Source: Antedon bifida (lineage: Eukaryota > Echinodermata > Crinoidea > Comatulida > Antedonidae). Taken from it: a stretch of DNA of 64,000 bases. Where the stretch lies: positions 29,883,409 through 29,947,408 of the forward strand of contig OY727093.1 of assembly GCA_963402885.1 (NCBI GenBank), written 5' to 3'. Below, one piece after another: positions 30,681 to 63,472 of the stretch (position 1 is the first letter of the stretch; every line of letters begins with the position of its first letter). Position numbers and translations under genes: made by a program. The notes under the pieces are model-generated. The model was not told where the DNA came from. It saw only the letters and a list, made by a program, of their open reading frames with translations, and did no database searches.

Positions 30681-31091
30681 CTACTTCGAGCTGGTGTATT
30701 TGGTTACAGCCTTGGTTCCCTCACTCACTGCATGTTTGGCAAGTTCGCCAGGCAGGAGAAGACGGACAGCAGTTTGCACCTCACGACTGCTGATTGTAGA
30801 CCTCTTGTTGTAATGAGCCAAACGGGATGCTTCTCCAGCAATACGTTCAAAGACATCATTGACGAAGCTGTTCATGATTGACATGGCACGGCTAGAAATT
30901 CCAGTGTCTGGATGTACTTGCTTCAGAACTTTGTAAACATAGATGCTGTAGCTTTCCTTTCGTTTGCGTCGGCGTTTTGTTACAGCATTTCGTCCACGGC
31001 CTTTCCCTGCCTTCTTCATGCCTTTGCCAGCCTTCACCGGGCTCTTCTTAGGACTCTTCCTTGGACTCTTTTTTGGACTTCTTGGTGGCAT
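30681..31091 (-). CDS. Histone H2B, sperm-type N-terminus
   Basis: This is an intronless 136-residue histone H2B. The core is canonical ([44 protein letters not shown]-like C-terminus reading AVTKYTSSK). The N-terminal tail starts [20 protein letters not shown]: four tandem SP(K/R/V)K units. Such repeats are known from sea urchin sperm H2B, where they bind linker DNA and are phosphorylated on Ser. The human-type N-terminal tail is replaced and the protein is about ten residues longer than somatic H2B. The gene is divergent from H2A, with a TATA box (31147-31154) and a stem-loop 3' end. Male-germline expression is inferred from the tail, not shown. Confidence 0.95.
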
Positions 31092-31437
31092 CTTGAATTT
31101 ATTACGCTCAAAATTAAACGATGATCATTTCATTCAATTTGGCCGGTATTTATAGGCACGGTATGCAAATTAGGTTTCTAATTCGAGCTATTCCTGCAAA
31201 CACTCTTAGCCAATCAAACTATTATAAAAGATAGCCAATCATCGTTTTCCTTGTAGGTTATTGGCTAAAAAGTTTTACAGCTTGAGCCCATCTGTAATTG
31301 GTTGGCGCGCGCGTAACATTTCGATTGGATGTTGATAAACCGAACTATGAGCCTCCAAAAACCTATAAAAATAGCGGTGTACATTTATTCTCTGTTTATT
31401 TCGTGGTTGAAAATATTTGTAGTGCTGTATAACCATA
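31092..31437. promoter_or_regulatory. Bidirectional H2B/H2A promoter
   Basis: A 346-bp spacer separates the two start codons. Elements seen: a minus-strand TATAAATA (31147-31154) for H2B, an octamer ATGCAAAT (31163-31170) next to it, CCAAT boxes at 31210 and 31235, inverted ATTGG at 31260, 31297 and 31324, and a plus-strand TATAAAA (31364-31370) for H2A. Octamer and CCAAT elements are established control sites of echinoid sperm H2B promoters. The five CCAAT-type boxes form a symmetrical cluster usable by both genes. Confidence 0.88.
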
Positions 31438-31806
31438 ATGTCTGGACGAGGTAAAGGAAAAGGAGGAAAGAGAAAAGGTGGGAGGACCAGGTCAAGTCGT
31501 GCTGGACTTCAGTTTCCAGTAGGACGTGTACATCGTTTTCTTCGCAAGGGCAATTATGCCAATCGTATTGGTGCTGGTGCACCCGTTTACATGGCGGCTG
31601 TTCTCGAATATCTGACTGCTGAAATCTTGGAGTTGGCTGGAAACGCAGCGAGAGACAACAAGAAATCAAGAATAAATCCACGTCATCTTCAACTAGCTAT
31701 TCGTAACGACGAAGAGCTGAACAAATTACTCGGAGGCGTAACAATTGCTCAGGGCGGTGTTCTACCCAACATTCAGGCTGTGCTTTTGCCAAAGAAAAAG
31801 AAATAG
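31438..31806 (+). CDS. Histone H2A
   Basis: This intronless 122-residue canonical H2A starts [20 protein letters not shown]. The [20 protein letters not shown] core and the acidic patch (EYL, AEILEL, NDEEL) are intact, and it ends [10 protein letters not shown]. It forms the H2A-H2B dimer of the nucleosome. Two departures from the usual metazoan sequence stand out: RINPRH in place of RIIPRH, and a short Lys-only C-terminus without the SHHKAKGK-type tail. The N-terminus is Gly/Lys/Arg-rich. It is divergently paired with the sperm-type H2B and carries the same stem-loop, so the two are probably co-expressed. Whether it is a sperm variant cannot be decided from sequence. Confidence 0.97.
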
Positions 31807-43700: not shown

Positions 43701-46700
43701 GGTTATTTTCAATCCAATTTATAAATGCAAAGAAATGTCATTCAACTTTACCTGTAATATTGTCATTGAATTATTTGATTTCATTTCCACTTAATACTCT
43801 TTAGATGTGCAAAAAAAATACATTAAAGCTCTGTCTACACTATCAAACTTTATGTGACAAAAAAATGTGATGTGCCCATATGATGTCATAGGTAAAGGTA
43901 AAGTCGGAACCTAAGCTAATGCTAACGGCTGTGGTGCCCATCTCCATTTCCTTAGCGTTTGGGCCAGACTCCACTAAGTGTGTATGTTTGTGGGGGGTAC
44001 GCCACTCCTCCCGCACAAACGAGTCTGATTTACCTTCCCAGTACTTTTTACATACCGGTACCCATTTCTATCACCTGGGTGGGGAGGAACAATGTGGATA
44101 AAGAATCTTGCTCAAGGACTCAACACTGCAGTGACCGAGTCGGGGCTTGAACCGACAACCTCTTGATTGCAAGTCCAATGCTCTAACCACTGAACCGACA
44201 ACCTCTTGATTGCAAGTCCAATGCTCTTACCACTGCGCCACAGTGCTCCACTATGATGTCATATCATTACCATATTTGGGCATATCACCACCTTATTTGG
44301 GCACATCACACTTTTTTTCGTCAAACTAGTTTGATAGTGTAAACAGAGCTTTAAAAAAAAAAAAATTGAAGACGGAAACAAAAGCAAAACTTTTAATAAA
44401 AACAAGGATGTGAGAATTTATATTATATAAACTAATTAAAAAATCACTATTGAAACTAGTATTTAATATATTGTGCAATAAAACTTTAAAAAATAAACAA
44501 TTTTACAGATTGATGGTTCTGCAACTGTACGTGTTTGTCCGGGAAAATATGTTGATGGTCTTTACGGTGACTACTTTCGAGGCGTCCTTCACATAGAAGC
44601 CAAAGTCGTTGCATCAGATGGTAACACGTTTTCTGTGATTGATGAATCCTGTCCAATCTACAAGCAACAGTTAATACATATTAAGTTTTCTCAGGGCACA
44701 AAGCAGCATTTTAAGCCAGGCTTACCATATAAAGGAAAGGTATGAACACTAAACAACACTAAAACTTTAGAACACTAAAACACTAAACAACACTAACGTA
44801 AGAACACTAAACAACACTAAAACAGCAATTTTTATCATTAGATAACACCATAGAGAATATCTCTATGATTTACACTAGTTTCCAGCAAGCTATGTTATCA
44901 TTGTAACTTTTTCGTGACAAAAATGGGACAAATAACAGATTCAACATGTTGTGGGAGGTAAAGATGATACAGTGAAAAACAAAGTATGGCGGGAATTATA
45001 ATGATTATATTTAGGAAGCTGCTGTCATTAAGGAAAGAAATGATCATTGTTTTGAGGAAAATATTTGCACAACTGATGGAAAAAGTGAGCAGCTTTGACA
45101 TGATGCAGGAAGTATTGTCTGGTAATAGGAAGCTCGTTGATTGGACGCTAGGGCTGTCTGAATAATCTCCCCAGCTGGGTGTTTTAAAGTCATTAGGCCT
45201 TATAATTTGTTGGTAATTACTCTTGATGTTGAGATAAAGACCGTCCCACCTTTCATATACAAGAAGCAGATGTCTGAATTTTGTGTCTGCAAGATTGTTA
45301 AATTTACGAATAAAAAACAAATGTTTTTAATTTGTTGTTATGATATCAATTATAATACTTCCTGTGTTTTTTAATAGTTCAATTTTATAGCTAAATTAAT
45401 TTTGTTTTGGTTAATTAGTCTGGAGCACTTTTATCATGCCATAAAAAATATGACAACTTGCTTTGTAATGTTTTTATATTAACAAACCACATTTTATGCC
45501 TTCGTATCGTATCGTTTTATATTTGTTTTCTTGTTTTGCCTGCATATGCTTGGTCCTCCAAGCTGTGACCTGGGATGTTTGTTACATTTTTGTGTATTTT
45601 ATTTGAAATAAACGATGATTTTGAGTGAATTAAGTATTAATAATTTAACATAAAGTGTTTATTCAAGAATTTGTATATATGGGGAATAATTTTGATATGC
45701 TCTCTGAAGTAAAATTCATTTCTTTGACCGTAACATTCATATATTATAGAGATTGTACCTTTATCATAGCAAATGTCATTGTGCAAACCATTAAAAGACT
45801 TGCTGTACTATACAACTATAAACTCAACCTTCCATTCAATAAAGATGAAATAACAATATAATTCATATAATAATAGTAATAACAATATATCAATATAATA
45901 ATAGGCCTAGTGTTGTTACTTTTACAGATTTTAGTTACCTACCCAGATGGCTCGCCAGCAGATGGCGTCACTATCAGAGTCAAGACAGCAGCAGTTCAGG
46001 AGGAGGCTGCATTTAATGAGGAGTTTGTTTCAAGAAATGGCGCTGTCTCGTTTCAAATCCCAGTAATTGAGATTTCAACACAAATGCTTTGGCTTGATGT
46101 GAGTAAGCTTTCAAAATAGTGCTATTATAAGCATAACTAATTATGCTGAATACTTTATTTATTTTTGTTTATTATGCATATGTATTGCTGGGGCCCTCAT
46201 GAGACAAGCGTTTGCTTCTAGTGTGGGCCCTAGTTGTTATTATTGTTATAACTGAATAAATGTGTATGAATGAAGAGTAATAACATTTGTCTGTGTGATT
46301 TATCCAAAAAGTGCAAACATGAAACCTCCAAATGCATTTTGCACACCCATAAGTAGACATTGATTCACTATTTTATTTATAATTACAGGCTTTAGTGACG
46401 GCCATTGATGGTAAACCAGTAAAAGAATTCACTTACTACTCGGAGTACCTAACAATTTACAGTTGGTTCTCACCATCAAAGAGCCACCTTCTGCTGAGCA
46501 ATATCAATGAAGGGGAGGTTGAGGTAAGAAATGCATTGTTGCCCTGAATCTGCTCAGCTAGGCCAATAATCTTAACTTTTCCAGCACAAGCATACATTAT
46601 GCTTGCGGCTTAGAAAACATGAGATACTGTACATAAGATACTGCACACTGCAAGTGAGATACTATATATGAGATACTTTACATGGGATACTGCACATGAG

Positions 46701-49700
46701 ATACAGTACTGTACACATGGGATACTGTACACATGAGATACTGTACACATGAGATACTGTACACATGAAATACTGTACACATGAGATACTGTACACATGA
46801 GATACTGTACACATGATGGTTATCGTATAAAGGAATATAGAAAAAAAACAAAAAACAATCCTGGTTAAATTATAGTCTGAATGTTAACAAATATAATGAA
46901 TTCCAGTTCTCTAAAATATTATGTTCGTATCCGTGTACCAATTTACAGACTTGTAGAATGAATTGTTTTATTTCTATTAGGTTGGCAGCATGGCAAGAAT
47001 TGGACTCATGTCAACGATGCCATGTAACTTTACTTTAAATTACGATATCATTTCAAGAGGGCGCATAGTTACCTCCAACAGTCGCATGATTACTGAACAA
47101 CGGTCGGAAGAATTCACCTCACAAGGTCAGTAACTTCACAATTCCCATTAAAGATATTGAAATACAAGATTCATTTGTACTATGTTTTATGAATATTTCA
47201 TTATTTTTCTTAAAATCAAGATATATAATGTACTGTACATATATTTTTGATCCAGATACTTTGAATACAACAATGTTAAATGTTGGATGCCACGTAACTT
47301 TTGATGTTGAAGTGACCCACGCTATGGCTCCTGGGTTCCAGCTCGTTGGTTATATGGTCAAGCAGGACCGAGAGGGTGTGACCGACACAGTGACCATTCC
47401 AGTTGCACACAGTCTGCAGAACAAAGTACTTTTTTTTTCTTAAAAATAAATTCTAAAAAAAAAACTATGTAGCTTATTTTATGTAAAAATGATGGCTTTC
47501 TTATGTGAATTTTAAAGTAAGAAAAGTAAGAAAATTTTATATTTGTTTTCCTAGGTAACCGTGACATCATCAGTAAATGAGACTTATCCTGGTAGGAAAG
47601 TTGACATTACCATCAACTCCACACCTGGCTCGTGTGTGTGTATTACATCAGTGGACAGAAGTGTACATTTAATGAAGCCAGATTACCATATAACCATTGA
47701 CAAGGTATATGTACAAAGATAGGCTTAAAAGGCATATATAATGAGTTGTTATCACTATCACAATTCCTTATCATATACTGTATACAGGCCTCAAACTTAT
47801 ATAATGGTACCTTACAAGTAAAATTCATTTTCAACCAAAGGCTGAATTGCTGCATTTTTTCACAAGAAAATTACAAAATTAAAAATACAAAAAGTTCAAA
47901 TTTGAAAATAAATAAAAACCTTCGCTAAGGGAAATAAAATATAATGTATGTATATAAAATGAAGTAAAAGGAGTAATGATAAAAATGTAACGAAAAAAAA
48001 AGACTGTCCAGAAACAAAAGCTCTCTAATGTCATTGATAGTGAGTTGATGTGCATGTAAATGTCAAGTCATGCTTCTTAGAAATGGTTCTATTTAGCTGC
48101 ACCACGGCCACACTAATCCAATTTACCCATACTTCCTGACGCACATTGATAAACATTACATGAATGAAAATGTTTACTTTTTGAAGGAAATTGCTGTAGT
48201 GGTTGTTTGAAACTACTAGTATATATATAAACTTTATTTATTCACAAGGCTGATGTATACAGCATAACTTGTTCAATCAACATTGGATGTTTTTACACAA
48301 GTTTGTGATATTACAAAATTAATGAAACCCATATAAATACGAAAAAGAAAGAAAGAAAGTATATATTTGATTTGTTTGAGGTCTAAATATAATTTTGGCC
48401 TATGTTTATAATTCTAATAATTATAATTGTAAAAAGATTATTTAAAAGTAAGTTTAGTACTCGATAGATTTTAATGTCTTGATAGAAAAGGACTTTTTAG
48501 TTACTGAATTTATAAATTAAACATTTTAATTTCAAAAACATGTTTTTTAACCAACTTCGTCACTGCTAGATTTCTAGGAATCTTAAATGGGTTAATTGGT
48601 TTGACAGAGGGTATCAGCTTATCACATAATAAGTGACACAGCATATTGTATAATACCAAATTGACAAGCTGTAAAAATAGCATTTGACTTTCCCCATTGC
48701 ATGACCAATTGGTTGTTGAACTTTTAATTGATAAAAGGTGTATTTCTAATGTAAATATAAAGTAATATGTAATATCATTCTTTCATTTATTTATTACCCA
48801 TAATAATAACTAATCAAATAAAACAATTTCTCTTTATTCATCTCATAAACAAACAAAAACACAAAACAAACAAGGAGTAAAACATATTTTTAAAGATGAA
48901 AGGGACCTCCAGGAAACCCCAATTACTAATTATGTACATCTTTATTTTCAGGTTTTTGATGAGATGGAAAGTTATTCATCACATGATGAATATTCATATG
49001 AGAATGTTTGGTTTAGTGAGGGTAAAAGAAAAAAGAGATCTCTATGGAATTATATTGGAGGAAGAGACGCAGGACTTGCATTCACTGTGAGTGTCTATGA
49101 GTCACACTTTATTTGGTTACCAGATTAGACCGATGTCACACTTTATTTTCTAAAGGCCAACTCAGACAGCGTTGTACGACGAGGCTCATCTGGAGAAACT
49201 AAAACATGTTTAATGTTCTCCCGACAACCTAAAAACTATGCCCGGCGATATCTCAAGACGACTCGTCTCGTCGGGATTCAACTCGGAAAGCATTAACGAA
49301 TCAAGGTGTTTCATCAGGCCTCATACGATGCTGTCTGAGTTGGCCTTTACCAGACTAGAGACCGATGTCTCCACATGAGTACAGTGGAACCCTTTCTTTA
49401 GACTAATAATCAGGGGAAACTTTTATGTAAACCGACCAAGTGCAATGTATGTGTTAACGCTACAACCAATCCCTATTCAGGACACACACTTTGTTTTGGT
49501 TCCAAATGTGTCCCCTTATATGGTTCTACTGTATTCTATTATCTTATTTCTGGATTATATCTCCAAATTAATGTTGCATGTTGTTTCAAACTTTAATGTT
49601 TGTTTTCCTTTATGTTTTGACATTCAGGAAGCTGGTCTGAAGGTAATGACAGATGTTGTCTTGCTGAGGTTTCATCAGAATGGTGCTATAGATGGTAATA

Positions 49701-52700
49701 ATTATAATAATATACATATATATACAAGGTGAAACTGAGAAGGGGAGGGGTGAACCTTAAAGATGTATTATGTAAATAAGTATTTCACTTAATAAAAAGA
49801 CAAAAGAAATTTTAACCATTGTCTGACAGACAATTTAAGTATTTTTTGCTTTAGAGTATATTTTTTCCAGGTAAATAATTTTTTTTATTAGGAACAATAT
49901 ATCTTTAAAGATTAATAATATATAATATACAGTCAAAAGGCCCAAAACATCAGCTCTTTGTAAAAAGCATTTTGGAACCTCAGGAACCTAAAACAAAATT
50001 ATGGTTTTTAGCAGTATTATGAAACAACAACAATAACAACAGAGTATTTTTATAATGGTATATATTTTTGTCTTTTTTTGGTGTAAATTAGAAAGAGTTG
50101 AAGTGGTCACAACACTAAACAAAAAGAAAGAGGAGTCTCGACTTCCAAAGCGGGAAACACAAAAGAGGTCTTACTTCCCAGACACTTGGATTTGGCATTG
50201 TTTTAACATGAGGTAAACTTACGATTAATAATAATTTAGTTGGAAGCTATTATTTTATTTTGAATACCATCATGGATAAATTGATTGATAAAAAGTGGTA
50301 AAGTTAAAAAAAATGTTTTCAGAATGTCTTTAAAGCTCTGTCTACACTATCAAACTTTATGTGACGAAAAAATGTGATGTGCCCATATATGGACACGATG
50401 ATGTCATATCACAACCATATTTGGGCATATCCCTACCATATTTGGGCATATCACACTTTAGTTTTCAAACTAGTTTGATAGTGTAGACAGAGCTTAATGG
50501 AAGTGTCCATTATGTGGTTCATAGAGAAAGAAAGTTGGGAGAACTTATTTTCCCAATAACATGTTTGCATGGTTGTAAATTTCGTCCCTTAAATCTTTAG
50601 TTCAACAAGAAAACAAGAAACGTTTAGTGTCCACATTCCAGACACAATCACGTCCTGGGTAACGGATGTAGTGTCAATGTCGAAGCATACAGGTCTGGGC
50701 ATAGCAAGGCAGTCAACTATTAAGACGTATAAACCGTTCTTTATTGAATTTGCTCTGCCTTACTCAGTGATAAGAGGAGAAAAGGTGAAAATCCCTATCA
50801 CAGTGTATAACTATTTGGATACGTGTGTACAGGTAGGTGGTACTGAATTATGCTTATTAAATTGTTTAATTTTCTTGTATACGGTTTTATTTTAACTGTT
50901 TGTATTGTATGGAGTGAGTGCAGAATCTGTTTGGGCTTTAACCTACAGTATTCTCACTCCTGGTCATTTTTCATTGGTGACCGAATAAATATTATTATTA
51001 TTATCTACTATTATGGGCGGTTGGGTTGGGTTGGATTTTTGGATGGGACATCAAAGTTGTAAAAGAAATTTCATAATAGTGTAATCTGGGAGGTATAAAT
51101 AATTATTTTTATACCTCCCTGTTGTAATGTCATCAGGACAGACAATTGTTCTATATTTATATTTAAGTATTTTGTTTTCTTTTACATTGTTGGCATTTAC
51201 AGACATTTTTAAATCTCCAAGGTGATATATAATCTTATTTTATTTTAGGATTTCCAGTTGAGAAATATTTTTTGTTACATTTTAATTCATAATTTAATGA
51301 CGGCTGTTCAGTAAGTTTTGTTAGGGAGAATTTTAGGAAAAATGTGGTTTTAAACTAAGTTGTTTGGAGTTAAAATATTAAAGGTTGTTAAGGGAATAAA
51401 GTTTGGTTGGCAAAAATCCATATACTCTGATAAAAATATTGTATAAATTTATTGTATTTAATATTATGTATCTTCATAATTCTAAGGTGTCAAATTTGAA
51501 GATATTGAAAATATGAGAGAGAGAGAGAGATTGTTGTGTATATGATGGTTTGGTCTGTCCTGTATTTTAAGCTCTGTCTACACTATCAAACTAGCCAAAA
51601 AAAGTGTGATGTGCCCAAATATTGTAGTGATATGCCCAAATATGGGCACATCACATTTTGATAGTGTAGACAAGACTTTAAGGGTCAACTGCATTTACTA
51701 AAAATACATTTCTCTTCCAACAAAATTAATAAAGAAATCATTTTGTAGGCATCAGTGACTTTGCACCTGTCAGATGGTATTCATTTCGTGGACCATCCTG
51801 GAAAACGTCATGATATTTTAAAATATTGTATGGAACCAAATGAACTGAAAACAGTTGAACATTTGTTGACCTTTGACCAGCTTGGTACAGGAAAAATACA
51901 AGGTATGCATGTTATCTATGATATCCATTGTGGGTTGACTGCTAACAATAATACAGAAATAAATAGCAATGTTGATACTTCCACCTCCCCCTCCCCACTA
52001 CATTGATTTGATAACAATTTAACATTTGATGACATTTCTTGCAGCTAAAGTTGTGGCAACAAGGTCAATGTTATGCTGTGGTGATACTTCTGCAACTGAA
52101 ACACCTCTAGCCATTGACAGACTGTCAAAGCAGATAGAAGTAGAGGTAGAACCTCCTTAACATTATATTTTTGGGTGTTCCTTATACCAAGGCAATCTAA
52201 AAACAGGATGTTGAGCCCCGGAGATCAAAGGGTTTATTTATTATTTGTGGCTACGACATGATCAGTTAACCGAAACCGCGTGCTGCAGAGAATATGTAGT
52301 ACTGTACTGTTGGTATTTGTTGCAGCCAGACATAAGATCAAAGGACTGTTATGAGTTCCTATCTTGGCAAAGCAAGCTCAGTGTCCTGTTGTTAGATTGC
52401 TTTGTTTATACCAAAGACCATCAAGTAGTAACTTTATATAGATGTAGATATCCTTTTAAAAAATTCCAGTAATCGAAAATGAAATGCTTGAGATATGTAA
52501 TATTTATTTCATGTTTATATGTTGACAGGCAGAAGGAATACTTCGCTATTATACACACAGTGTATTCTTCTGTCCTAATGGTAAGTCACTTATTGATATC
52601 ACCATTTTGAATCATTTCTTTATTCTTTATACTATAGAGAAATACATATTTGTATACAGCAATTTGAATATTATTTTGTCATATAGTTTTAGAATGAAGA

Positions 52701-55700
52701 AATTGCCATTACCATTAATAATTGAAAGTTCATATGTGCTGGTAAAAAATATAAAATGTTGAATTTTGTGCTGTAAGTGTGTAAACATTTTACAATATTA
52801 ATTAGTTAATTGTTAATTGTTCAATTTTATTTTTATTTATTTTTTATTTTATTCAATTCACAACCAACAGAGATAAAAAGCTCTACTAACAGACTGAGAT
52901 AAAACAAACCAAATGTATTATTTATTTCAGAGCGTATCACAATTTCAACTCCTAACACATACGATTACAAGTATGTGAAAAAGCCATCCAACCTGCAAGT
53001 GTTTTCATTCGCATGTAAAGCCAAGAACGACGCACACATCGCATTAGCTGTCGACCCAACTGGCATGGATCTTTACGAGATTGTTCTTGGAGGATGGCAG
53101 AATACAAAGTCGTGGATCACAGCCTCTAAACAAGGTAATCATTGTTGGATTATTGTCACTCAAGTTCAACAGTTATTTACAATCAAGTATTCTCATATTT
53201 AGCTTATTAGCTTATTTCCATTGAGATTCTATATGTGTGAAAGTGAAAGTGCGACAAGAAAAATAAATTGATGTTATTATTATATTAAGGACTTTTGCTT
53301 TAAAAAAATAAAAATCTGGAAAGAAATTTTTCTTCATTCAAATCAACCTTAATTTTACATCATAAAACCTCACAAATTAAGATGAAGGACATAAAAAATT
53401 CGAAGCCTAAAAACTGTTTTTACCTAATCATACAACAAATATATTTTTATTTATTAGGAGAGCATCTAGTAACAGTTTCAACTCCTGGAATTGTATCCTG
53501 GGATGAATTTAGAGCATTCTGGATCACCTTTGAGAATGGTCTCATTGTGGTAAAGACACTTGTTATTGTTAAAGATGTATTGTTCTGCAAAAACATGAAA
53601 AATGAAGATTAATAAAATCAGACTTTGAATAGGCCATTTTGCAGTTTTATTAAAGTTATTCACTTCTGTGAAAAAAAACCCACAAAAAATAATTATTTCA
53701 CTTATAAAAAGAAAAAAGAAACAGTTAATTTTAACCAAAAACCATTGTCTGACAGACAATTTAAAAAAAAAATTATTTACCTGAAAAAGTGTAATTTAAA
53801 AAATACTTAAAAGTATTTTTTAAATTACACTTTTTTCAGGTAAATAATTTTTTTTTTCGATCAAATTTTTGGTCAAATTGAATATCTATTGATTAATGTG
53901 ACATTTAAATGGCATATTCAACAAAAGATTTGAACCCAAAAAATGTTTAGGGGGACAATATATCTTTAACTATAGTTAAGCTGTAAAATGTGAGCCTTTA
54001 CTAATTTGATAGAATATGAACTATTTAATGATGAAAATTACTTAAAATTCACAATGTACAGTAATATCCACATGTTTTATTAAATCATTGAATTGTTTAA
54101 TTTTTAGGTTGGCCATGGTGAAATTCCAAGTAATACCTCTACTATCATGAGTTGGCAGTTGGAATCTGAAATCAATGTAGATTATTTAGGATTTTCAACA
54201 GGATGGGGATCAATGGGGGAGTTTAGAATTTGGAGGAAAGAGGGTAAGTAGACATTGTAATGTTTAATTGTAGTATAGCTTAAGCTCTGTCTACACTATC
54301 AAACTTTTTATGTGACAAAAAAATGTGATGTGCCCATATATGGATGTCATATTTGGGCATATCACTACCATATTTGGACACATCACACTTTTTTTGTCAA
54401 ACTAGTTTGATAATGTAGACAGAGCTTAATATGCATAGAGAATGTTAGTTGAGATCATCATTTAATTTCATTTATTCGTCTCAAAACAATAAACAAAACA
54501 ATAAAATAATAAATAACAATTTTTTTTATGATTAATTAGATTCTCAGAATCGTTTCTTGGAAGTGTTCAACTTGGGTTTACCGTTAAACTACATTCCTGG
54601 ATCGGAGTATGCCGTGGCGTCCATGGTGGGAGATGTCATGGGGCCCACACTGACAAACCTACATAACCTAATCAGATTACCATTTGGATGTGGCGAACAG
54701 AACATGATTCATTTTGCACCGAATGTGTATGTGATGGGTTACTTGGAACGTACGCAACAGCTCCATGAAGGAACGCAGAAAGAATTGGTTACGTTCCTTG
54801 TACAAGGTGAGTGATAACAATTATTTTTATTGTCTTAAGCTCTGTCTACACTATCAAACTAGACATTAATAAATGTTGAATTATATTGTTAAACTAGTTT
54901 GACAAAAAAAGTGTGATGTGCCCAAATAGATTACTGTAGTGATATTCCCAAATATGGTAGTGGTATGAAAACATCATGTCCATATATGCCCATTTTTTTG
55001 TCACATAATGTTTGATAGTGTAGACAGAACTTTAAAACCAATGTTTTTGATTAATCTTTTTTGTATTATAGATCAATTTATGAATATGTAATGTATCTAT
55101 TTTCAATAGTAGGTAGTAGGTCTCTGAGGTGTCAATTGAAATTGAAACTTAGATTTGTGGTTAATTATATTTTGTTTAGCTCTCTGTATCATAAAATGTC
55201 AGGTTAATGATGAAGATACTTTAGTATTGGTAGACTCAGAATTGTAGTAAAAATGTCATGTTCAAGAGACTAGACCTTGGTAAACATTAATTTATAATCA
55301 TTCAAATGTAATTTTTTTTAAACTATTGATTGTTCATTGGTGACAATTTATTGTCATTTATTTGTTAGGCTATCAAAGACAGCTGACCTACAAGCATAAC
55401 GATGGGTCATTCAGTGCCTTTGGTCAACGTGATTCCTCTGGAAGTATGTGGCTTACGGCATTCGTCCTCAAGTCCTTTGCACAATCACGACCGTTCATCT
55501 TTATTGACTCAAAGTTGTTGGATGGCAGCAAATGCTGGATCATAGGCCAGCAGCTTCCTGATGGATCATTTCCTCCTGTTGGAAGAGTTCTTAACAAAGA
55601 CATCCAAGTAAGTTAGTAACTTAGTTGACTAAGTGACCAAAGTTGAGTAAGGGGCCTAAGTTGAGTAAGTGACCTTAGTTGAGTTAGTGACCTAAGTTGT

Positions 55701-58700
55701 GTAAGTGACCTAAGTTGAGTAGGTAAGTGGCCTGGTTGATCATACTGTTAAATTAATTTAAGTAAGGATCATTTTTACACAATAGCATAGTCCTAAACAG
55801 ATAATAATATTCTCTTAAAAAATACTTGTGTAATAAAATGCCTCTACAGGGTTGTGAAATAATTTCAGCCATTTTAAATCATTTTGATAGCTCTCTTAAA
55901 TTCATAGAGAACATTTTAGTAGGGTTACCTCTGCACTGCACTGACACTGGAGTAGAACCAACAACAGATTTAGATAAATGTTGAATATTAATTAATTAAT
56001 ATGAATATTCATTTACAGGGTGGAGTTAAAGGAAAAGTTTCTCTGACAGCATATGTGGTGATTGCATTACTGGAAGCTGGTGTTGAGTCTGTGGAAGAAC
56101 TCGCATCCATTGATAATGGAAAGAAATTCCTGGAAGATAACATACAGTATATAGATGACCCATACACTGCTGCACTCACAGCTTATGCATTGGTTAAACT
56201 TGACAGCCAGGAGTCAAACAGAGCTGTGAGAATATTAAGAAATATGGCCATTACACAAGGTAAGCATTCAACCTTGTTTTTGTCAATCTCAATAGTATTG
56301 TTAAATCAATCGAAACTTTAGATATCTGTACAACCCAAGAAGTCAAATGAAAATGTTTTAACATAAATATTTTAATAGTTCTATTTGTAAAGCCTATCAA
56401 ACTTTATTTGACAAAAAATGTGATTTTTTTTTCAAACTTTATTTGACAAAAAATGTGATGTGCCCATATATGGACATGATGATGTCATATCACTACCATA
56501 TTTGATCATATCACTGCCATATGTAGGCACATCAATCTAGTTTGATAGTGTAGACAGAGTTTAACGGAAAAATGTGTATTAGGGTTATTTGGTAGGCTGA
56601 TTATTGTCCTTGCCATGAAAATATTATTGTAATATTCGTAGATGGTTACACATCTTGGCGTCTAAACGGGAACCCAGTTGAGACTGTGGCGAGGTTTGGT
56701 GGATTTGAAGACCTCAAACAGACTATTAACTCAGCAGAAGTGGAAATGACAGCTTATGGTTTACTGACGTACACAGCATTAGGCGATATCGCATCATCAT
56801 TACCGATTGTAAAATGGCTGTCACAGCAGAGGAACACACTTGGGGGCTTTACATCAACACAGGTATACAAATCTATATATATTAGGAGTATCAGTGGTTG
56901 GATGTCAACGGAGATACAAATAAAATGATCAAAATGCTAAATCAAAATGGTATATAGTTAAAACAGCCAGAAAGAAGTTCCACTAGCTTTTGTAAAACAC
57001 TAGTGAGTGAGTGGCCTAGCGGTTAAGACAGTGCCGCCGTAATTACGTAGCCAAAATATCGGCAAGGGTTTGAGGCTCACTCGCTCCATAGTTCAGGACT
57101 ATAAACCGTAGGTCCAGTTTACACATCTAGCTCATGTGCACTTTAAAGAGATGAGTACACTTTTGAGACGGGTAGGGGGTTACACCGGTGTACTAGTACA
57201 TCCCAGTCACTGATTATAAACGAGCCCTCTGGGAGACCAGTCTTTGACTGAAGAGGTCGCCCAGTATTGATAAAATATTTCAATTCTATTTGATCATCAG
57301 GGCTAATTCTGAAATGTTTTAGAAATATCTTTATATAGGATACTTGTATAGCTCTACAGGCTTTGTCCGAGTATGCTTCCTTGGCATATGTTGGCGGTGT
57401 TAACTTGACCATCTCCCTGGCAACTGGTAGCTTAGAACAGAGCTTTGAACAGACCTTTGAACTTAACAATGATAACAGCAAAGTATTACAGCGAGTTTCG
57501 GTAAGTGAATCATAATACAGTATATTATGTTACCTGTGTGTAATTTTCACCATTCTATGATTTTTTTTGTTACACCTACTATAGCCAACTGTTTCAATGT
57601 TAAGCTCTGTCTACACCATCAAACTGTATGTGACAAAAAAATGTGATGCGCCCATATATGGACATGATGATGTCATATCACTACTATATTTGGGCATATC
57701 ACTATCATATTTGGGCACATCACATTTATTTGTGATAGTGTAGACAGAGCTTTATATAGTTTTGTTGCCATACATTTAGTGTGAATTTAGCCACTTTCGC
57801 CCATGTATAAATGCTACACATTAAAATGATATACAAAAAAATACAGTACAGAACTAGACTGCTTACTTGGACTTGGATATCAATTATTACTTCTTGCTAA
57901 TCGAACGAAAATTTCCCCTGACACTTGTTTTATTTTTCCAGATTCCCCAGATTCCAATTGTGATGTTTGTGAAAGCTGAAGGAGAAGGTTGTGGCTTGCT
58001 ACAGGTAAGAACAAAAATGTGATAAAAATCTATTTTTAAATGATAAAAAGCTGCTTGTAATCGCATTACATTGACAGGATTGATCTAGGATTTTGAAATA
58101 GGCTGGCACAGGGCACCTAAATGTTGTGTGAACCGACTATGCCATCATTTGTAATTCATCCTATATTTCTACCATTGTATTCTGACACTTTTTCTAGGCC
58201 CTCATTCTATTTCCAATATGTAATTGTCTTTGAAGTCTATTGTATTAAGATGATAATAAATTTACAAATAGATCGATGTTAAATATAACATACCTGATCC
58301 ATCCACCAAACAAGCTTTCAAACTCAGTGTTAAAATGAGAGATGCAAAGAAGACTGGAAATTCCATTCGTCGTAGGCGCTCTACTGATGGCCAGGAGGAG
58401 TTGCAACAAAACTCTTTTGAAGAACAAGACATAGTATTGATCCAGGCCTGTTCACGCTGGCTGCACCCAGGCTCATCCAACATGGCTGTGCTAGAAGTGT
58501 CACTCCATACCGGTCTTACTGCAGATTTAGACAGTCTTGATCAGGTAACATTGCTTTTTAGAATTGATTGGCCCTCCTGGCTCCAATTATTCCCAAAGAC
58601 TTTGAAGAGGGCATTCCATGTTAGTAAGCGCATTTTTATTTATGCATAATGAAGACGATAAATTAATATGTATGTTTTGTTTAGTTGATTTATGATCGTT

Positions 58701-61700
58701 CTACTGGTGTAAAACGTTTTGAGGTTGACGGCCGAAAGGTGTTGTTCTATTTCAATGAGATTCCAAGTCAATGTCAGACGTGTATTAACTTCACCGCATA
58801 CAGAGATTATGTTGTTGGAAATCTCAAATCTGTGCCAGCAAGAATTTATGACTATTATGAGCCAAGTAAGTCAAATTACATTACAGTATTTTTGTATTCA
58901 ATTCAATAAAAAAGAATGTATCTGTTATTGCATGTGTATCTTGCAATGTTGACTGAATTACCTCTTTTTAACCTGGTAAAATGTGTGTTTTATGTTGTCT
59001 TGCTTTTGTACTCTTTTCTTAGGGCTAGACCTTGTACCCCTCCTGGAAAACCAACCTACCAACCCTACCATTCTTGATCTCTCTGCATTTATGAATTATG
59101 CCACACATGTCTACACATATCCTATTGACAGTGACTGACTGTATTTTATTTTCAGGTTTTGAAGCTACCCAATTTTACAATGTAAGCAGAAGTAGTTTTA
59201 TTGCAAGAGACCCATGTGATGGGGATGAATGTAACAAACTACCAGATGATACACCAGACATGGCACAAGAACAAGGTAAAGGGATGTTTGTTGCAGTGTT
59301 ATTATAGTACAAGAATAATTCTTGGCAGTGCTACTACTTTTAGGTTTAGTATTGTTCTTCCTGTATTGTTGATGGTATTTCAATGTCATTTTAATTCATA
59401 TCTAGCCATTATAAAACTGCAGTACCAATTAATAATATCCTATCTCTGCCTGTGAAAGGAGAATTTCAGTCCAGATATGATAGATATTTAAAAAAGAAAG
59501 AGATTTTACAATTTGTAGAGCCTGTAGCCCTGTCTACATTATCAAACTTTATGTGACAAAAAATGTGATGTGCCCATATATGGACATGATGATGTCATAT
59601 CACTACCATATTTGGATATATCACTACCATATAGGCACATCAAACTTCTTTTGTAAAACTAGTTTGATAGTGTAGACTAACAAAACTTTTTACTAGTTCT
59701 AGACAATGATTGCAATACGTTATCCAATGATTGTGATGAAGATGATAATGATGTGGACGTGTGTGGTTGTGACCGTACATGCATCAGCACAGGAACTCAG
59801 ATCTGTGGTAGTGACAACAACTGGTATAATAGTGTCTGCCAAATGGAGGTTGCAGCTTGCAAGTCATCGTACTCTGTCTACGCAGTTCCTCCTACTTCCT
59901 GCCCAGGTACTCTTTTATTTTTATTTTTTTTTAAGTTCTCTGTAATTTCACTTGGTTCAGAGTTCAAATCATAAGTTTAGTTCTCAATTTATGTTTAACC
60001 CCGTTAATTTCTGTTGAAATAAGCATGAAAATAGTTATCAAACATATTAATGTGTGAGCCATAATGACTTTGGAGTTAGTCCTTAAGGTCATTTACAGTA
60101 TTTAATTGACATTTTTTAGAGCAACTTGAAATTCCGACTCCAGAACAACCGATAATCTCAACCAGTCGACCAGTGGATGTCAATTATGCAGGTTAGAAAT
60201 ATTTTGGCTCACTTTCTCTTTTACAAATAGTATCCAATTTTTAATTAGACTAATATAAAAAGTCTTTTAAAATCGTTTACACTGTATTTCTAGTTTATAC
60301 CAAATGAAAATATTAGCTGTAAATGAAAACTTAAAATATTCCATTTTCATTTTCCAAACTTGGTTAAAGCATCATGTTTTTTATTCTCAATGTGTAGAAT
60401 ATGGTAGCTCTGGAGACATAGGAGCAGTGTACCAACCTGAGATGGTAGACTATAGCAGCAGGTTAGGTTCTATGTATGAACTGATTTCCACCAAATTGAA
60501 ACCTAATGCTGATATTGTTGAAGATGCAGGTGAGAAGGCTTTTGGTATGGCACTTTATAACCATGGATTGCATTATAGTTACCCTACTCTCCCCATTTTA
60601 ATAACTGGCCTGTTGCCATTGCTGAATTTAACTTTTGAATAACCAGCTGTTCTGGTTCTATAAAAAGCCTCTTTGAATTTTCTTTTTTGGTATCAAGAAT
60701 GTAAGTGTAATTTTATTTATTGATAATTGAATAATATTAATTTATAGTAAACGTTGATGAAGATATTGATTATGAAGAAGACCTGATTGACTTGACAGAA
60801 GAAGCATTATCTGGAGAGAAAGTTGAAAACGATTATTTTGACTTGGCAGAAGAAAAATTACCAATAGAGGAAGTTGAAAAAGAGTTGATTGACTTAACAG
60901 AAGGAATATTACCCAGAGAAGAAGTCGAAAAAGATTATTTTGACTTAGCAGATGAAAAATTACCTGAAGAACTAGAAAAAGAGGAAATTGACTTAACAGA
61001 AGGAACTTTACCAGGAGAGGAAGTTGAAAAAGAGGAGGTTGGCTTAACAGAAGGAATATTACCCGGAGAAGAAGTTGAAAATGTTTATTTTGACTTAACA
61101 GAAGGAACATTACCTGAAAAAGAACTAGAAAAAGAGGAAATTGACTTAACAGAAGGAACATTACAAGGAGAGGAAGTTGAAAAAGAGGAGATTGGCTTAA
61201 CAGAAGAAACATTACCTGAAGAAGAACTAGAAAAAGAGGAAATTGACTTAACAGAAGGAACATTACCAGTAGTGGAAGTTGAAAAAGAGGACATTAGCTT
61301 AACAGAAGAAACATTACCTGAAGAAGAACTAGAAAAAGAGGAAATTAACTTAACAGAAGGAACATTACCAGGAGAGGAAGTTGAAAAAGAGGACGTTGGT
61401 CCAACAGAAGAAACATTACCAGCAGAGGAAGTTGTAAAAGATGAGATTGACTTAACAGAAGGAACATTACCCGAAGAAGAACTTGCAAAAGAGTTAACAG
61501 AAGGAATATTACCCAAAAAGGAAGTTGAAAACGATTATTTTGACTTAGCAGATGAAGAATTACCTGAAGAAGAACTAGTAAAAGAGGAAATTGACTTGAC
61601 AGAAGGAACATTACCAGGAGAGGAAGTTGAAAAAGAGGAAATTGACTTAACAGAAGGAGCATTACTTGAAGAAGAACTAGAAAAAAAGCAAATTGACATA

Positions 61701-63472
61701 ACAGAAGGAACATTACCAGGAGAGGAAGTTAAAAAAGAGGATGATGACTTAACAAGAGGAACATTGCCTGAAGAAGAAGTTGAAAAAAAGGAGCAGATTG
61801 AATTAATAGAAGGAACATTACTAAGAAAAGAAGTTGAAAATGATTACTTTCACTTAGCAGAGGAAAAAGTACTTAGAGAAGAAGTTGAAAAAGAGATTAG
61901 CTTACCAGAAGGAACATTACCCAAAGAAGAACTTGAAAAACAGGAGATTGAATTTACTGAGGAAAAATTACCTAGAGAGGAAGTTGAACAAGATTATTTT
62001 CACTTAGCAGAAGAAAAAGAAAAATTACCCAGAGAGGAAGTTGAAAAAGATTATTTTCACTTAGCAGAAGAAAAATTACCTAGAGTGGAAGTTGAAAAAG
62101 AGGAGGTTGGTTTAACAAATGGATCATTACCTGAAGAAGAACTTGAAAAAGAGGAAACTGAACTAACAGAAGTGATTTTAACTAGAGAGGAAGTTGAACA
62201 AGATTATTTTGACTTAGCAGATGAAAAATTACCTAGAGATGAAGTTGAAAAAGAAGAGGTTGACTTAACAGAAGGAATATTAGCGGAAGAAGAACTAGAA
62301 AAAGAAGAGATTGAATTAACAGAAGGAACTTCACCTGAAGAACTTGAAAAGGAGAAAATTGAATTAAGAGACGAAACATTACCTGAAGAAGAACTTGAAA
62401 AAGAGGAAGTTGGAAATGATTATTTTTACTTAGCAGAAGGAAAATTACCAGGAGAAGAAGTTGAGAAAGAGGAAGTTGGCTTAACAAATGGAACATTATC
62501 TGAAGAAGAGCTTAAAAAAGAGGAGGTTGGCTTAACAGAACCATTGCTTGAGGAAGAGGAAGTATCAACTGTCCTTGTGGAGCTTCAAACCGATGTTAGT
62601 GATATCCTTCTACAATCTTCAAACTATATGTCCTATCTGGCCGAATCCTTCTATACAGTTGACATTGATCAGCAAGACCCTTTTCCTGAAATGGTTAATA
62701 CCCGTCATCAAGACCCAAGTCTAGATGTTACCCCCACCCCTCATCAAGACCCAATTTATGAATTTAACCCTACACAACAAGAAGAAAACCGTCATGAAAT
62801 TGACCAAACTCAAGAGCAAGAACCCACTCCCAAACTTGACCCCACCCATGAGGAAGTACTTGTCCATAAAATATTATCCTCTCAACAGCAAGAACCTACT
62901 AAAAAGAACTCCACCCATCAACAACAGAACTCCACCCAAATTGGAAATCAACAAGAACCAGTAGCTGAAGTTGTTGCAACCCATGTGCAGAAATCGCTTG
63001 ATGAACTAGATACCACTCGCCAACCAGGTGTAATAGACGGTTCTACCCAACAACTGACGACTATTTTAGATCAAACAACTGAGATTGTAGAGGTTGAGGA
63101 AGAGAAGGATACAAAGGTACTGGAATAGAAATACATAGACAGTAATAAAAGAATTAAAACATTTAAGATATAATAAAGTTACACTAAACAGTTTTTTTAA
63201 ATTAATACATTGTTGAATCAATTGGATATATGATAATATACAATACATAGAAATCAATAACAAGTTTTAAAACATTATAAAAAAATTTATACATTTTAAT
63301 AATAATTCTTCAGTTGTTAGAATTACTGGAGTCATCAACCGTTAGGCCGATGGTGCCATCGACAGACCACTTCCCAACTGATAGTGCTTCCACAGAAGAA
63401 ATTGTTAAAAAACCAACACAAATACCCTTACAGAAGGAAGAAAATGTTGGTGAAACAGAGGTCGAATATAAG
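34775..63472 (+). CDS. CPAMD8-like thioester protein (C3/alpha-2-macroglobulin family), 3' end beyond window
   Basis: Thirty-nine exons join in phase, giving at least 2622 residues: 34775-34863, 37146-37297, 37797-37819, 38941-39109, 39724-39776, 40702-40774, 41233-41346, 42409-42493, 43515-43623, 44509-44739, 45928-46098, 46389-46523, 46981-47125, 47256-47425, 47555-47704, 48952-49086, 49628-49694, 50092-50212, 50601-50832, 51749-51902, 52045-52145, 52529-52580, 52931-53134, 53458-53549, 54108-54243, 54540-54806, 55369-55607, 56019-56259, 56642-56862, 57339-57500, 57942-58004, 58272-58544, 58685-58865, 59156-59275, 59703-59906, 60120-60191, 60398-60529, 60748-63116, 63314-63472. Order: signal peptide (about 1-28), macroglobulin domains ([14 protein letters not shown]), KRKKR (648-652), YFPDTWIW (718), FAMeT-like domain (about 911-1054), thioester GCGEQ (Cys1105), RRRR (1485-1488), Kazal-like module (1644-1711), acidic repeats (1780-2569). 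A TEP with a Kazal domain fits CPAMD8, a secreted, furin-processed innate-immunity relative. The family is certain; orthology is likely. Confidence 0.88.
35299..35728. mobile_element. 430-bp foldback element with AAAATAGTG ends
   Basis: AAAATAGTGATCTTAAACATG and TGTACTCACTTTTCCCACG at the left pair with GGAAAAAGTGAGTACA and GATGTTTAAGACCTAAACACTATTTT at the right. The interior is made of repeated, inverted TTTAGGTTTTAAACA(T/C) motifs. It is non-coding. Confidence 0.75.
36567..36905 (+). repeat. Degenerate tandem array, GATTAAGTGGAAAAGTTAGCA unit
   Basis: At least eight copies of TTGCGATTAAGTGGAAAAGTTAGCA-like units with variable linkers (ACTTTGC, CTGTAACT) occupy this stretch of the first intron. 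The period is irregular (about 30-40 bp). Confidence 0.85.
37797..37819 (+). other. 23-bp microexon of the CPAMD8-like gene
   Basis: The exon encodes only GKGNIDFK (with one base from the previous exon). It is flanked by a TTACAG acceptor and a GTAAGA donor. Phase 1 in and 0 out are exactly what the neighbours require, which supports it despite its size. Confidence 0.82.
41365..41697. mobile_element. Foldback element family B, copy 5
   Basis: The ends read TTAAAGATATAATGTCCCCC and GGGGGACAATACATCTTTAA. It starts 18 bp after the donor of the exon ending at 41346. Confidence 0.82.
42011..42139. mobile_element. Foldback element family A, copy 11
   Basis: The left end AAGTTCTGTCTACACTATCAAACT and the right end AGTTTGATAGTGTAGACAGAGTTT enclose the family core. 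Confidence 0.88.
43329..43488. mobile_element. Foldback element family A, copy 12
   Basis: The ends AAGCTTTGTCTACACTATCAAACT and AGTTTGATAGTGTAGACAGAGCTT are intact; it ends 26 bp before the exon at 43515. Confidence 0.9.
43826..44351. mobile_element. Foldback element family A, copy 13, split by a SINE
   Basis: The left half (AAGCTCTGTCTACACTATCAAACT) ends at 43890 and the right half resumes at 44252, continuing to GATAGTGTAAACAGAGCTT. A 361-bp SINE separates them, and 12 bp (TATGATGTCATA) is duplicated at both junctions. Confidence 0.93.
43891..44251 (-). mobile_element. tRNA-Cys-like SINE nested in a foldback element
   Basis: On the minus strand the head reads TCAGTGGTTAGAGCATTGGA then CTTGCAATCAAGAGG and GGTTCAAGCCCCGACTC, which are the A box, anticodon arm and B box of a tRNA-Cys-like sequence. 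The first 45 bp or so of this head is tandemly duplicated (44142-44232). The 12-bp TATGATGTCATA target-site duplication (43879-43890 and 44252-44263) marks clean insertion into family A copy 13. The rest of the element is a body unrelated to tRNA. Confidence 0.88.
44739..44830 (+). repeat. ACACTAAACAACACTAAAAC tandem repeat
   Basis: About seven degenerate copies of AACACTAAA(C/A) begin right at the donor of the exon ending at 44739. Confidence 0.75.
46623..46815 (+). repeat. 16-bp tandem repeat
   Basis: The unit GATACTGTACACATGA is repeated about eleven times; the first half is degenerate and the last six units are nearly identical. It is intronic. Confidence 0.88.
48952..49086 (+). other. 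CPAMD8-like exon with a furin-type site
   Basis: Residues 624-668. The exon encodes an acidic Ser/Tyr-rich stretch followed by [17 protein letters not shown] followed by Ser fits the furin consensus R-X-K/R-R. Its position, about residue 652, corresponds to the beta/alpha chain junction of C3. Cleavage would yield an N-terminal chain near 70 kDa, in line with the two-chain processing I recall for CPAMD8. Confidence 0.8.
49152..49349. mobile_element. Foldback element with AAAGGCCAACTCAGACAGC ends
   Basis: TAAAGGCCAACTCAGACAGC at the left pairs exactly with GCTGTCTGAGTTGGCCTTTA at the right. Related sequence CCAGA(T/C)TAGA(GA)CCGATGTC occurs on both sides, which suggests the surrounding sequence was also duplicated. 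It is GC-richer than the intron around it. Confidence 0.7.
49757..49908. mobile_element. Foldback element family B, short copy 6
   Basis: The left end TTAAAGATGTATTATG and the right end GGAACAATATATCTTTAA remain, with the CCAGGTAAATAATTTTTTTT interior; much of the middle is deleted. Confidence 0.7.
50333..50495. mobile_element. Foldback element family A, copy 14
   Basis: The ends AAGCTCTGTCTACACTATCAAACT and AGTTTGATAGTGTAGACAGAGCTT are perfect inverted repeats of each other. Confidence 0.92.
51569..51678. mobile_element. Foldback element family A, short copy 15
   Basis: A 110-bp version with both ends (AAGCTCTGTCTACACTATCAAACT and TTTGATAGTGTAGACAAGACTT) and a reduced core. Confidence 0.88.
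52188..52401. mobile_element. Foldback element family C, copy 3
   Basis: The ends are CCAAGGCAATCTAAAAACAGGA and TCCTGTTGTTAGATTGCTTTG. The interior ACTGTACTGTTGGTATTTGT and GAGTTCCTATCTTGGCAAAG matches copies 1 and 2. Confidence 0.8.
52931..54243 (+). other. FAMeT-type (Methyltransf_FA) domain exons
   Basis: Three exons (52931-53134, 53458-53549, 54108-54243) encode residues about 911-1054. The motifs in order are [51 protein letters not shown] and [16 protein letters not shown]. This is the full signature of the farnesoic acid O-methyltransferase-like domain. Despite the name, this fold has no established methyltransferase activity in such proteins and is more likely a binding module. It sits directly before the thioester domain, where it would be exposed next to the reactive site. 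Confidence 0.88.
53569..53969. mobile_element. Foldback element family B, copy 7 with a long internal hairpin
   Basis: The ends TTAAAGATGTATTGTTCTGC and GGGGGACAATATATCTTTAA flank the family interior. At about 53773-53847 an almost perfect palindrome (TTACCTGAAAAAGTGTAATT and its complement, arms over 30 bp) is present, caused by the two halves of the foldback lying next to each other. Confidence 0.82.
54282..54427. mobile_element. Foldback element family A, copy 16
   Basis: The ends AAGCTCTGTCTACACTATCAAACT and AGTTTGATAATGTAGACAGAGCTT; the core is slightly shortened. Confidence 0.9.
54837..55032. mobile_element. Foldback element family A, copy 17
   Basis: The ends AAGCTCTGTCTACACTATCAAACT and GTTTGATAGTGTAGACAGAACTT. 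An extra AAACTAGTTTGACAAAAAAAG stretch makes it about 195 bp long. It starts 30 bp after an exon. Confidence 0.88.
55612..55730 (+). repeat. GACCTAAGTTGAGTAAGT tandem repeat
   Basis: About six degenerate 18-bp units begin immediately after the donor of the exon ending at 55607. Confidence 0.82.
56389..56562. mobile_element. Foldback element family A, copy 18, rearranged
   Basis: The left end is damaged (AAAGCCTATCAAACTTTATTTGAC) and the TCAAACTTTATTTGACAAAAA segment is duplicated. The right end GATAGTGTAGACAGAGTTT is intact. Confidence 0.85.
57003..57270 (+). mobile_element. tRNA-derived SINE, second family
   Basis: GAGTGGCCTAGCGGTTAAGA looks like an A-box region and GGGTTTGAGGCTC, about 60 bp later, a B box. 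A GC-richer body follows. It lies in the intron before the exon at 57339. Boundaries are approximate. Confidence 0.6.
57602..57752. mobile_element. Foldback element family A, copy 19
   Basis: The left end AAGCTCTGTCTACACCATCAAACT and the right end TGATAGTGTAGACAGAGCTT enclose the GTGATGCGCCCATATATGG core. Confidence 0.9.
58272..58544 (+). other. Receptor-binding region exon with second polybasic site
   Basis: Residues 1453-1543. [21 protein letters not shown] contains RRRR (1485-1488) followed by Ser, a furin-type site, in the segment between the CUB-like and receptor-binding parts. CD109, a relative, is also processed by furin near its C-terminus. Cleavage here would free the Kazal and acidic-repeat tail unless disulfides hold it. 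Confidence 0.75.
59526..59689. mobile_element. Foldback element family A, copy 20
   Basis: The left end AGCCCTGTCTACATTATCAAACT and the right end AGTTTGATAGTGTAGACTAA; it stops 14 bp before the Kazal exon at 59703. Confidence 0.87.
59703..59906 (+). other. Kazal-like module exon
   Basis: Residues 1644-1711 with ten or more Cys. The pattern CGCDRTC, then [21 protein letters not shown] matches the Kazal/follistatin consensus C-x-C-x3-C ... (V)CGSD-x3-Y-x-N-x-C-x6-C. It is encoded by a single symmetric phase 1-1 exon, typical of shuffled modules. Human CPAMD8 is the family member known to have a Kazal-like domain after the receptor-binding domain. An acidic stretch precedes the module. Confidence 0.87.
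60748..63116 (+). repeat. 2369-bp coding exon with about 35 acidic 17-residue repeats
   Basis: Residues 1780-2569 are one uninterrupted exon. From about 60783 to 62556 it is a 51-bp coding tandem repeat with two unit types. One resembles [17 protein letters not shown]; the other [17 protein letters not shown]. Units vary by small in-frame changes and a few in-frame deletions, and no stop or frameshift appears. After the array comes a Pro/Gln/Thr/His-rich stretch with repeated HQDP and QQEP. The tail is strongly acidic and probably disordered. Tyr flanked by Asp/Glu is a plausible tyrosine-sulfation target, since the protein is secreted. Confidence 0.92.

What the first reader, a model, noticed from the sequence alone, without database searches (positions are those of the whole stretch)
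60748..63116. Giant acidic coding minisatellite in a thioester immune protein
A single exon adds about 790 residues to a complement-like protein, built from about 35 units of 17 residues of two alternating types (DLTEGTLP... and [11 protein letters not shown]...). The frame is open throughout despite heavy divergence and unit loss, which argues for selection on length and charge. I know of no C3/alpha-2-macroglobulin family member with such a tail. It could bind calcium or cationic surfaces, carry sulfotyrosines, or act as a sacrificial bait. Function is inference.
Basis: partly seen in the sequence, partly recalled or inferred. Interest (0 to 1): 0.88.

Follow-up and report, generated by a model that had tools for sequence, protein, structure and literature searches.

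The report
Acidic repeat tail on crinoid CPAMD8
A feather-star protein of the alpha-2-macroglobulin family carries a very long, negatively charged, probably floppy tail made of about 35 repeats; relatives have shorter acidic tails, so it looks like an extreme, lineage-specific version of an old and unexplained feature.

Summary
The core observation holds. Exon 60748-63116 has fitting phases, AG/GT borders and 789 open codons; 604 of its residues form an acidic minisatellite (35 parsed units, 28 of 17 residues, net charge -176). The other 185 residues are not repeat, and the two unit types do not alternate. The gene is CPAMD8, an alpha-2-macroglobulin-type protein rather than a C3-like one; it starts at 34775 and ends 452 bases beyond the window. 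Antedon mediterranea (core 98% identical) has the same array, 525 residues long: outer units match one to one, the middle has turned over. Anneissia japonica has homologous flanks but no array. In 15 invertebrate deuterostome proteins and a lamprey it is 316-898 residues. Four of these 16 tails (Antedon, Anneissia, Saccoglossus, Ptychodera) carry repeats, each different; 12 do not. Best reading: an old, disordered polyanionic tail enlarged in the Antedon lineage by in-frame duplication and kept coding. Capture of cationic proteases or matrix is the likeliest role, but inferred. Sulfotyrosine is possible; hirudin-like motifs do not exceed composition.

The parts
34775..63472 (+). CPAMD8 gene, 38 modelled exons inside the window; it continues past the window end
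   Evidence: tblastn of A. mediterranea CPAMD8 (P0001) and splice-site fitting. The exon 2/3 region is short by about 14 residues; a micro-exon is probably missing there.
34775..34863 (+). first coding exon, signal-peptide region
   Evidence: signal peptide judged by eye, not predicted
46981..49086 (+). exons of the bait-region domain and the stretch after it, with a basic KRKKR site
   Evidence: PF07703 43 bits in the frame translation; P0001 residues 462-613; sequence
50092..50832 (+). A2M domain exons
   Evidence: PF00207 85.2 bits; P0001 residues 722-813
52931..54243 (+). exons of the Methyltransf_FA (FAMeT) domain between A2M and TED
   Evidence: PF12248 51.1 and 50.9 bits in two frames
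54540..54806 (+). exon with the thioester motif GCGEQNM
   Evidence: PF07678; alignment to alpha-2-macroglobulin structures
58272..59275 (+). exons of the receptor-binding domain, with an RRRR stretch just before it
   Evidence: PF07677 19 bits over a split domain, below its cut-off 21.7; 96.8 bits in P0001 at residues 1520-1612; model
59697..59906 (+). Kazal-like exon
   Evidence: 68 of 68 aligned residues identical to P0001, with 2 gap columns; Kazal_2 18 bits in P0001, below the cut-off 22.8
60120..60529 (+). two linker exons between Kazal and the array; homologous in Anneissia
60748..63116 (+). giant tail exon, 2369 nt
60750..62561 (+). acidic coding minisatellite, 604 aa, 35 units plus an end piece
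   Evidence: only strong match in the genome
62562..63116 (+). non-repeat part of the same exon, rich in Q, T, P and H; homologous to Anneissia
63314..63472 (+). next tail exon, phase 0
   Evidence: The final exon lies outside the window: L009 695-958 plus TAA, equal to window 64186-64452.

Best explanation
This is the crinoid ortholog of CPAMD8, an alpha-2-macroglobulin-type protein with an intact thioester motif and a Kazal-like domain. After the Kazal domain, CPAMD8 proteins have an acidic tail that looks disordered: median 89 aa in 103 listed relatives, 316-898 aa in 15 invertebrate deuterostome proteins and a lamprey (computed). In the Antedon lineage a 51-bp segment inside this tail multiplied in frame to about 35 copies; the middle keeps turning over, and changes that would break the frame are absent (computed; that selection removed them is the likely reason). 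The most likely role is a flexible polyanionic tether that holds cationic partners, such as proteases with basic exosites or basic matrix proteins, close to the Kazal, bait and thioester parts, with charge and disorder rather than exact sequence or length under selection (inferred). I put the identity and origin part at about 0.93 and the tether role at 0.35; the number below is for the whole statement and so cannot exceed the latter.
For: Identity: best hits are CPAMD8 of A. mediterranea and A. japonica; core 1597 of 1629 aligned residues identical to A. mediterranea; A2M, FAMeT, TED, receptor and bait domains found (in two of three frames; for P0001). Tail in the family: 119 of 120 listed relatives, 117 of 119 net negative, 114 of 119 at -0.079 per residue or lower. 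The 16 long tails have -0.08 to -0.24 against -0.008 to -0.035 in 16 of 16 cores; 16 of 16 tails fall on the disordered side of the charge-hydropathy line and 16 of 16 cores on the other side. Origin: Anneissia aligns on both sides of the array (40 of 83 and 123 of 268 aligned residues identical, above 200 shuffles each) but lacks it; I chose the Anneissia split point by eye. Turnover: outer units are one-to-one, the middle differs. Constraint: pN/pS 0.78 over 28 units, 0.58 and 0.62 within types; no stop in about 128 parsimony substitutions, neutral probability 1e-6 to 7e-4 depending on the mutation model.
Against: No binding partner, expression, secretion or charge function was tested. pN/pS is not far below 1, has no significance test, and the planned control in the other frames failed and was dropped. 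Array length varies by 79 aa between the two species, so weak constraint is possible. No transcript evidence was seen; P0001 may be a pure prediction. Only two species with the array were found. Five of 119 tails are near neutral or weakly charged (P0040, P0046, P0065, P0081, P0086).
Confidence: 0.35

Rival explanations
1. Tolerated expansion: the array is a minisatellite that grew by slippage or unequal exchange in a disordered tail where extra acidic residues do no harm. Selection only removes stops, frameshifts and sticky sequence; the copies have no function of their own.
For: Length differs by 79 aa between two close species, turnover is in the middle, pN/pS is 0.58-0.78, and different repeats arose in the tails of Anneissia, Saccoglossus and Ptychodera.
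Against: Net charge per residue is similar in both species and both keep 9 YF units although total length fell; acidic tails recur across the family.
Confidence: 0.35
2. Sulfotyrosine exosite ligand (a special case of the tether): tyrosines in the acidic DYF units are sulfated and dock on basic exosites of serine proteases, as the C4 sulfotyrosine cluster does with the C1 protease and hirudin-like segments do with thrombin.
For: 10 of 11 array tyrosines are in acidic surroundings at one threshold, against 6.5 in shuffles (0.02 of 2000 reach it). Of 104 other relatives, 93 tails match one YYSYEYD-like pattern, and 6 of the 11 misses are variants of it. 78 of 103 such tails hold at least one hirudin-like segment by my definition, without a control. 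C4 and hirudin-like precedents: PMC9372746, sections 9 and 10 read.
Against: At two other thresholds the tyrosine context is not clearly unusual (0.23 and 0.08). Hirudin-like segments in the window tail number 5, within shuffled expectation (mean 3.4, maximum 9 of 500). No match to a solved exosite ligand: 5 unrelated chains at E 0.06 or worse. Sea urchin, Patiria and Acanthaster tails have 0 to 4 tyrosines. The 93-of-104 pattern was written after seeing examples.
Confidence: 0.2
3. Calcium or mineral binding: the tail loads calcium and places the inhibitor in the calcite skeleton.
For: A2M-like and Kazal proteins recur in echinoderm skeletal proteomes (PMC5460417 and PMC4336488, passages only).
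Against: CPAMD8 is not named in the passages seen; a library search for CPAMD8 with biomineralization found 0 papers. Amphioxus and lamprey also have long acidic tails without such a skeleton (general knowledge).
Confidence: 0.12
4. Annotation or assembly artefact: the exon is not part of the mature transcript, or the copies are misassembled.
For: No transcript evidence was seen here.
Against: Phase-matched splice sites on both sides, homologous exons downstream to a stop codon, and the same array in a protein annotated from another species.
Confidence: 0.04

Closest known systems
CPAMD8 of Antedon mediterranea (P0001, 2608 aa)
   Same: Same gene, same array with one-to-one outer units
   Different: Array 525 instead of 604 aa; middle units turned over
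CPAMD8 of Anneissia japonica (P0002, 2157 aa)
   Same: Same family and homologous tail flanks
   Different: No 17-residue array; a different short repeat of period 7 farther on
CPAMD8 of vertebrates
   Same: Same family, acidic tail after Kazal in most
   Different: Tail about 90 aa, with a compact acidic tyrosine cluster in most instead of an array
Acidic sulfotyrosine segments: C4, hirudin-like motifs, GPIHBP1, fibromodulin
   Same: Flexible anionic segments with tyrosines, used for docking (PMC9372746, sections 9, 10)
   Different: No homology found; sulfation and docking untested here; motif count not above composition

Membership tests
CPAMD8 | Closest sequence relatives are CPAMD8 over the core | tested here: met
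   The 120 listed of 3795 hits are named CPAMD8, or are unnamed, hypothetical or Kazal-like proteins of the same domain set; 98% core identity to A. mediterranea CPAMD8
CPAMD8 | Methyltransf_FA domain between A2M and TED | tested here: met
   PF12248 in two frames at the right place
CPAMD8 | Intact thioester motif in a TED domain | tested here: met
   GCGEQNM, PF07678 137.4 bits
CPAMD8 | C-terminal Kazal-like domain | tested here: inconclusive
   Cysteine-rich exon 59697-59906; Kazal_2 18 bits in P0001, below the cut-off 22.8; the window exon itself was not scanned in its own frame
CPAMD8 | RRRR processing site (PMC5142107, passages) | tested here: inconclusive
   KRKKR between bait and A2M domains and RRRR before the receptor domain in the model; homology of either to the human site was not tested
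C3-like complement proteins | Anaphylatoxin and C345C/NTR domains (recalled as defining) | tested here: not met
   Neither is among the 11 families at E 0.1 in P0001, the close ortholog; the window gene was scanned only as two of three frames
Hirudin-like exosite ligands | 8-residue anionic motif with aromatic-acidic pair, above composition | tested here: not met
   5 in the tail, 500 shuffles mean 3.35, maximum 9
Sulfotyrosine proteins | Sulfated tyrosine in the secreted protein | not testable with these tools
   Only acidic context could be counted

The most novel reading that the evidence does not exclude
The post-Kazal tail of CPAMD8 is a conserved functional part not described in the papers I could find: a polyanionic, probably tyrosine-sulfated docking arm that recruits cationic proteases to a combined Kazal, bait-region and thioester inhibitor. 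Vertebrates keep one compact tyrosine cluster, while the Antedon lineage carries nine DYF docking units spread through a 35-unit array.
Probability: 0.15. Interest if true: 0.7.

Novelty: new variant of a known kind. Interest (0 to 1): 0.42.

Why it matters
CPAMD8 mutations cause a human eye disease, yet the same paper calls the protein's function unknown (PMC5142107, title and passages). The comparison points at a part outside the folded domains, the acidic tail, found in 119 of 120 listed relatives and much longer in invertebrates. The two Antedon-type arrays give a natural length pair for asking whether charge, length or tyrosines matter. Six library searches with CPAMD8 or its full name listed no paper whose title or abstract start described the tail; I looked into the main text of two CPAMD8-related papers only (PMC9363628 and PMC5142107, passages).

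Tried and rejected
Rejected: random open frame (the five other frames hold 11-78 stops). Copies elsewhere in the genome: the array protein has one full match; the 8 other places are 19-30% identical and hold stops in the matched frame. The best of these, L011, is a 51-bp satellite, 95% uniform, of unrelated sequence; one 220-aa frame is open in it and its coding status was not tested. No PDB sequence match to the exon at E 1. Pfam hits DUF1639 (24 bits, above its cut-off of 22.2, but 20 residues and no stretch passing alone) and PyocinActivator on the exon are taken as chance in acidic sequence. Array seed: the Anneissia spacer resembles one unit, but 12% of shuffles reach the score. The exon alone found nothing at E 1e-5 among 7990 scored candidates, not even A. 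mediterranea, whose protein is too long for that search. The P0001 tail found only itself among 7975; Anneissia was not returned though one search shows homology, so that search misses relatives. DYF units are not clearly more conserved than others between species (115 of 120 against 187 of 199). pN/pS in other frames: the script failed and the control was dropped.

Not answered: PF12248 in the own genome (CPAMD8 paralogs) and the array as DNA.

Full report
What is there. The window (33% GC) lies at C1:29883409-29947408 of a 315.6-Mb genome in 27 contigs. A gene on the + strand covers 34775 to the window end. Pfam scans of two of the three + frames find A2M, Methyltransf_FA, TED, receptor (below cut-off) and bait-region domains. 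A draft protein finds CPAMD8 of Antedon mediterranea and of Anneissia japonica first, then CPAMD8 of other deuterostomes (best 120 of 3795 listed). Fitting the Antedon protein gives 38 exons in the window, 7830 nt, no stop; about 14 residues near exons 2 and 3 are missing, probably a micro-exon. The last exon lies beyond the window, 88 residues and TAA. The protein is thus about 2,710 residues. No tool names the species; a close relative of A. mediterranea is inferred.

The repeat. Exon 60748-63116 fits in phase on both sides. The array covers 60750-62561: 604 residues, 234 acidic, 58 basic, 11 tyrosines, no cysteine. It parses into 35 units plus an end piece, 28 of 17 residues, consensus [17 protein letters not shown]. 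Nine are DYF-type and they do not alternate with the rest. The remaining 185 residues of the exon are not part of the array.

Is it constrained? In the array only the coding frame is open. On a tree of the 28 full units I count 128 parsimony substitutions (40, 37 and 51 at codon positions 1, 2, 3). If random, the chance of no stop is 1e-6 to 7e-4 for transition weights 4 down to 1 read in reverse (1.1e-6 at weight 1, 2.7e-5 at 2, 6.9e-4 at 4), with a doubled weight for changes to A or T that I chose. This treats substitutions as independent and the tree as known. pN/pS is 0.78 overall, 0.58 (7 DYF units) and 0.62 (21 others); no significance was computed, and the control in other frames failed. 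So the array seems kept coding, with loose constraint on residues.

Comparison with A. mediterranea. Core 1597 of 1629 identical with 14 gap columns, array region 466 of 517 with 87, post-array 167 of 189 with 27. Its array is 525 residues in 31 parsed pieces; the first five units and about the last fifteen are one-to-one, the middle is not. Both have 9 YF units; net charge is -176 and -144. In 19 unit pairs that I judged clear, identity is 115 of 120 residues in DYF units and 187 of 199 in others, too close to claim a difference.

Comparison with others. Anneissia aligns before (40 of 83, including the Kazal end) and after (123 of 268) the array, above the best of 200 shuffles each, and has a short acidic spacer in its place. 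Of the 120 listed relatives, 119 have the Kazal-like cysteine pattern and a tail after it; P0115, a partial protein, does not. 117 of 119 tails are net negative. 103 are 23-160 residues (median 89); 16 are 316-898: 15 invertebrate deuterostome proteins, three of them Branchiostoma, and a lamprey. Internal repeats above every one of 60 shuffles occur in 4 of these 16: Antedon, Saccoglossus, Anneissia and Ptychodera, with different units; 12 of 16 show none. So the tail is old, and repeats arose in it more than once. Relatives outside the listed 120 were not looked at.

Tyrosines. In 93 of the 104 other relatives the tail matches a YYSYEYD-like pattern that I defined after seeing examples; 6 of the 11 misses are variants, the others truncated or odd tails. 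Those with names are vertebrates; six are unnamed. The clustering exceeds shuffles in three checked examples (0.0005, 0.006, 0.026). In the window's array 10 of 11 tyrosines are in acidic context at one threshold (shuffle fraction 0.02) but not clearly at two others (0.23, 0.08). Hirudin-like segments do not exceed composition. Sulfation is therefore a hypothesis.

Mechanism. The thioester region aligns about equally well to alpha-2-macroglobulin, A2ML1 and CD109 structures (E 1e-80 to 1.6e-78) and less well to C3 (1.2e-40). At the place where, from memory, C3 has its catalytic histidine, this protein has asparagine as A2M does, so reaction with protein amines would be expected (inference). 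A paper gives CPAMD8 a thioester, bait region, Kazal domain, membrane association and processing into two chains, function unknown (PMC5142107, passages). A polyanionic arm next to a Kazal domain would raise the local concentration of cationic proteases; [quoted passage not shown] None of this was tested for CPAMD8. Neutral growth in a charge-tolerant tail is an equal rival.

Verdict. A real coding minisatellite in crinoid CPAMD8; a lineage-specific extreme of a family-wide acidic tail. The family-wide tail, not the array alone, is the more interesting lead.

Noticed in passing
window, 29 places between 2593 and 59616: A 21-bp motif CATATCACTACCATATTTGGG recurs 29 times with up to 3 mismatches (expected 0.01), often as tandem pairs, several in CPAMD8 introns; looks like the core of a dispersed mobile element.
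   Followed up: partly
11295-11567 (+) and 16048-16159 (+): RhoGAP domain exon and, farther on, a 21-bp repeat in an open frame rich in E, K, P and V; whether one gene or two was not tested.
   Followed up: no
30684-31124 (-) and 31423-31803 (+): Core histone genes in head-to-head arrangement: H2A on +, and on - one that looks like H2B (H2B judged by eye).
   Followed up: no
20904-21257 (-): TMEM232 family exon.
   Followed up: no
L011 1501-3933 (C7, around 33331194): A 51-bp satellite, 95% uniform, same period as the CPAMD8 array but unrelated sequence; one 220-aa frame open.
   Followed up: partly
P0069, P0051, P0111 and other CPAMD8 tails: Compact acidic tyrosine cluster (YYSYEYD-like) after the Kazal domain, 93 of 104 by one pattern.
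   Followed up: partly
C-terminal ends of P0002, P0018, P0095, P0102, P0104: These invertebrate tails have a His- and Arg/Lys-rich patch near the very end, after the acidic part; P0119 has a His run 87 residues before its end (no control made).
   Followed up: partly
G000, contigs C1, C7, C8, C9, C13, C15: 34 TED-domain exon matches: a family of thioester protein genes in this genome.
   Followed up: no
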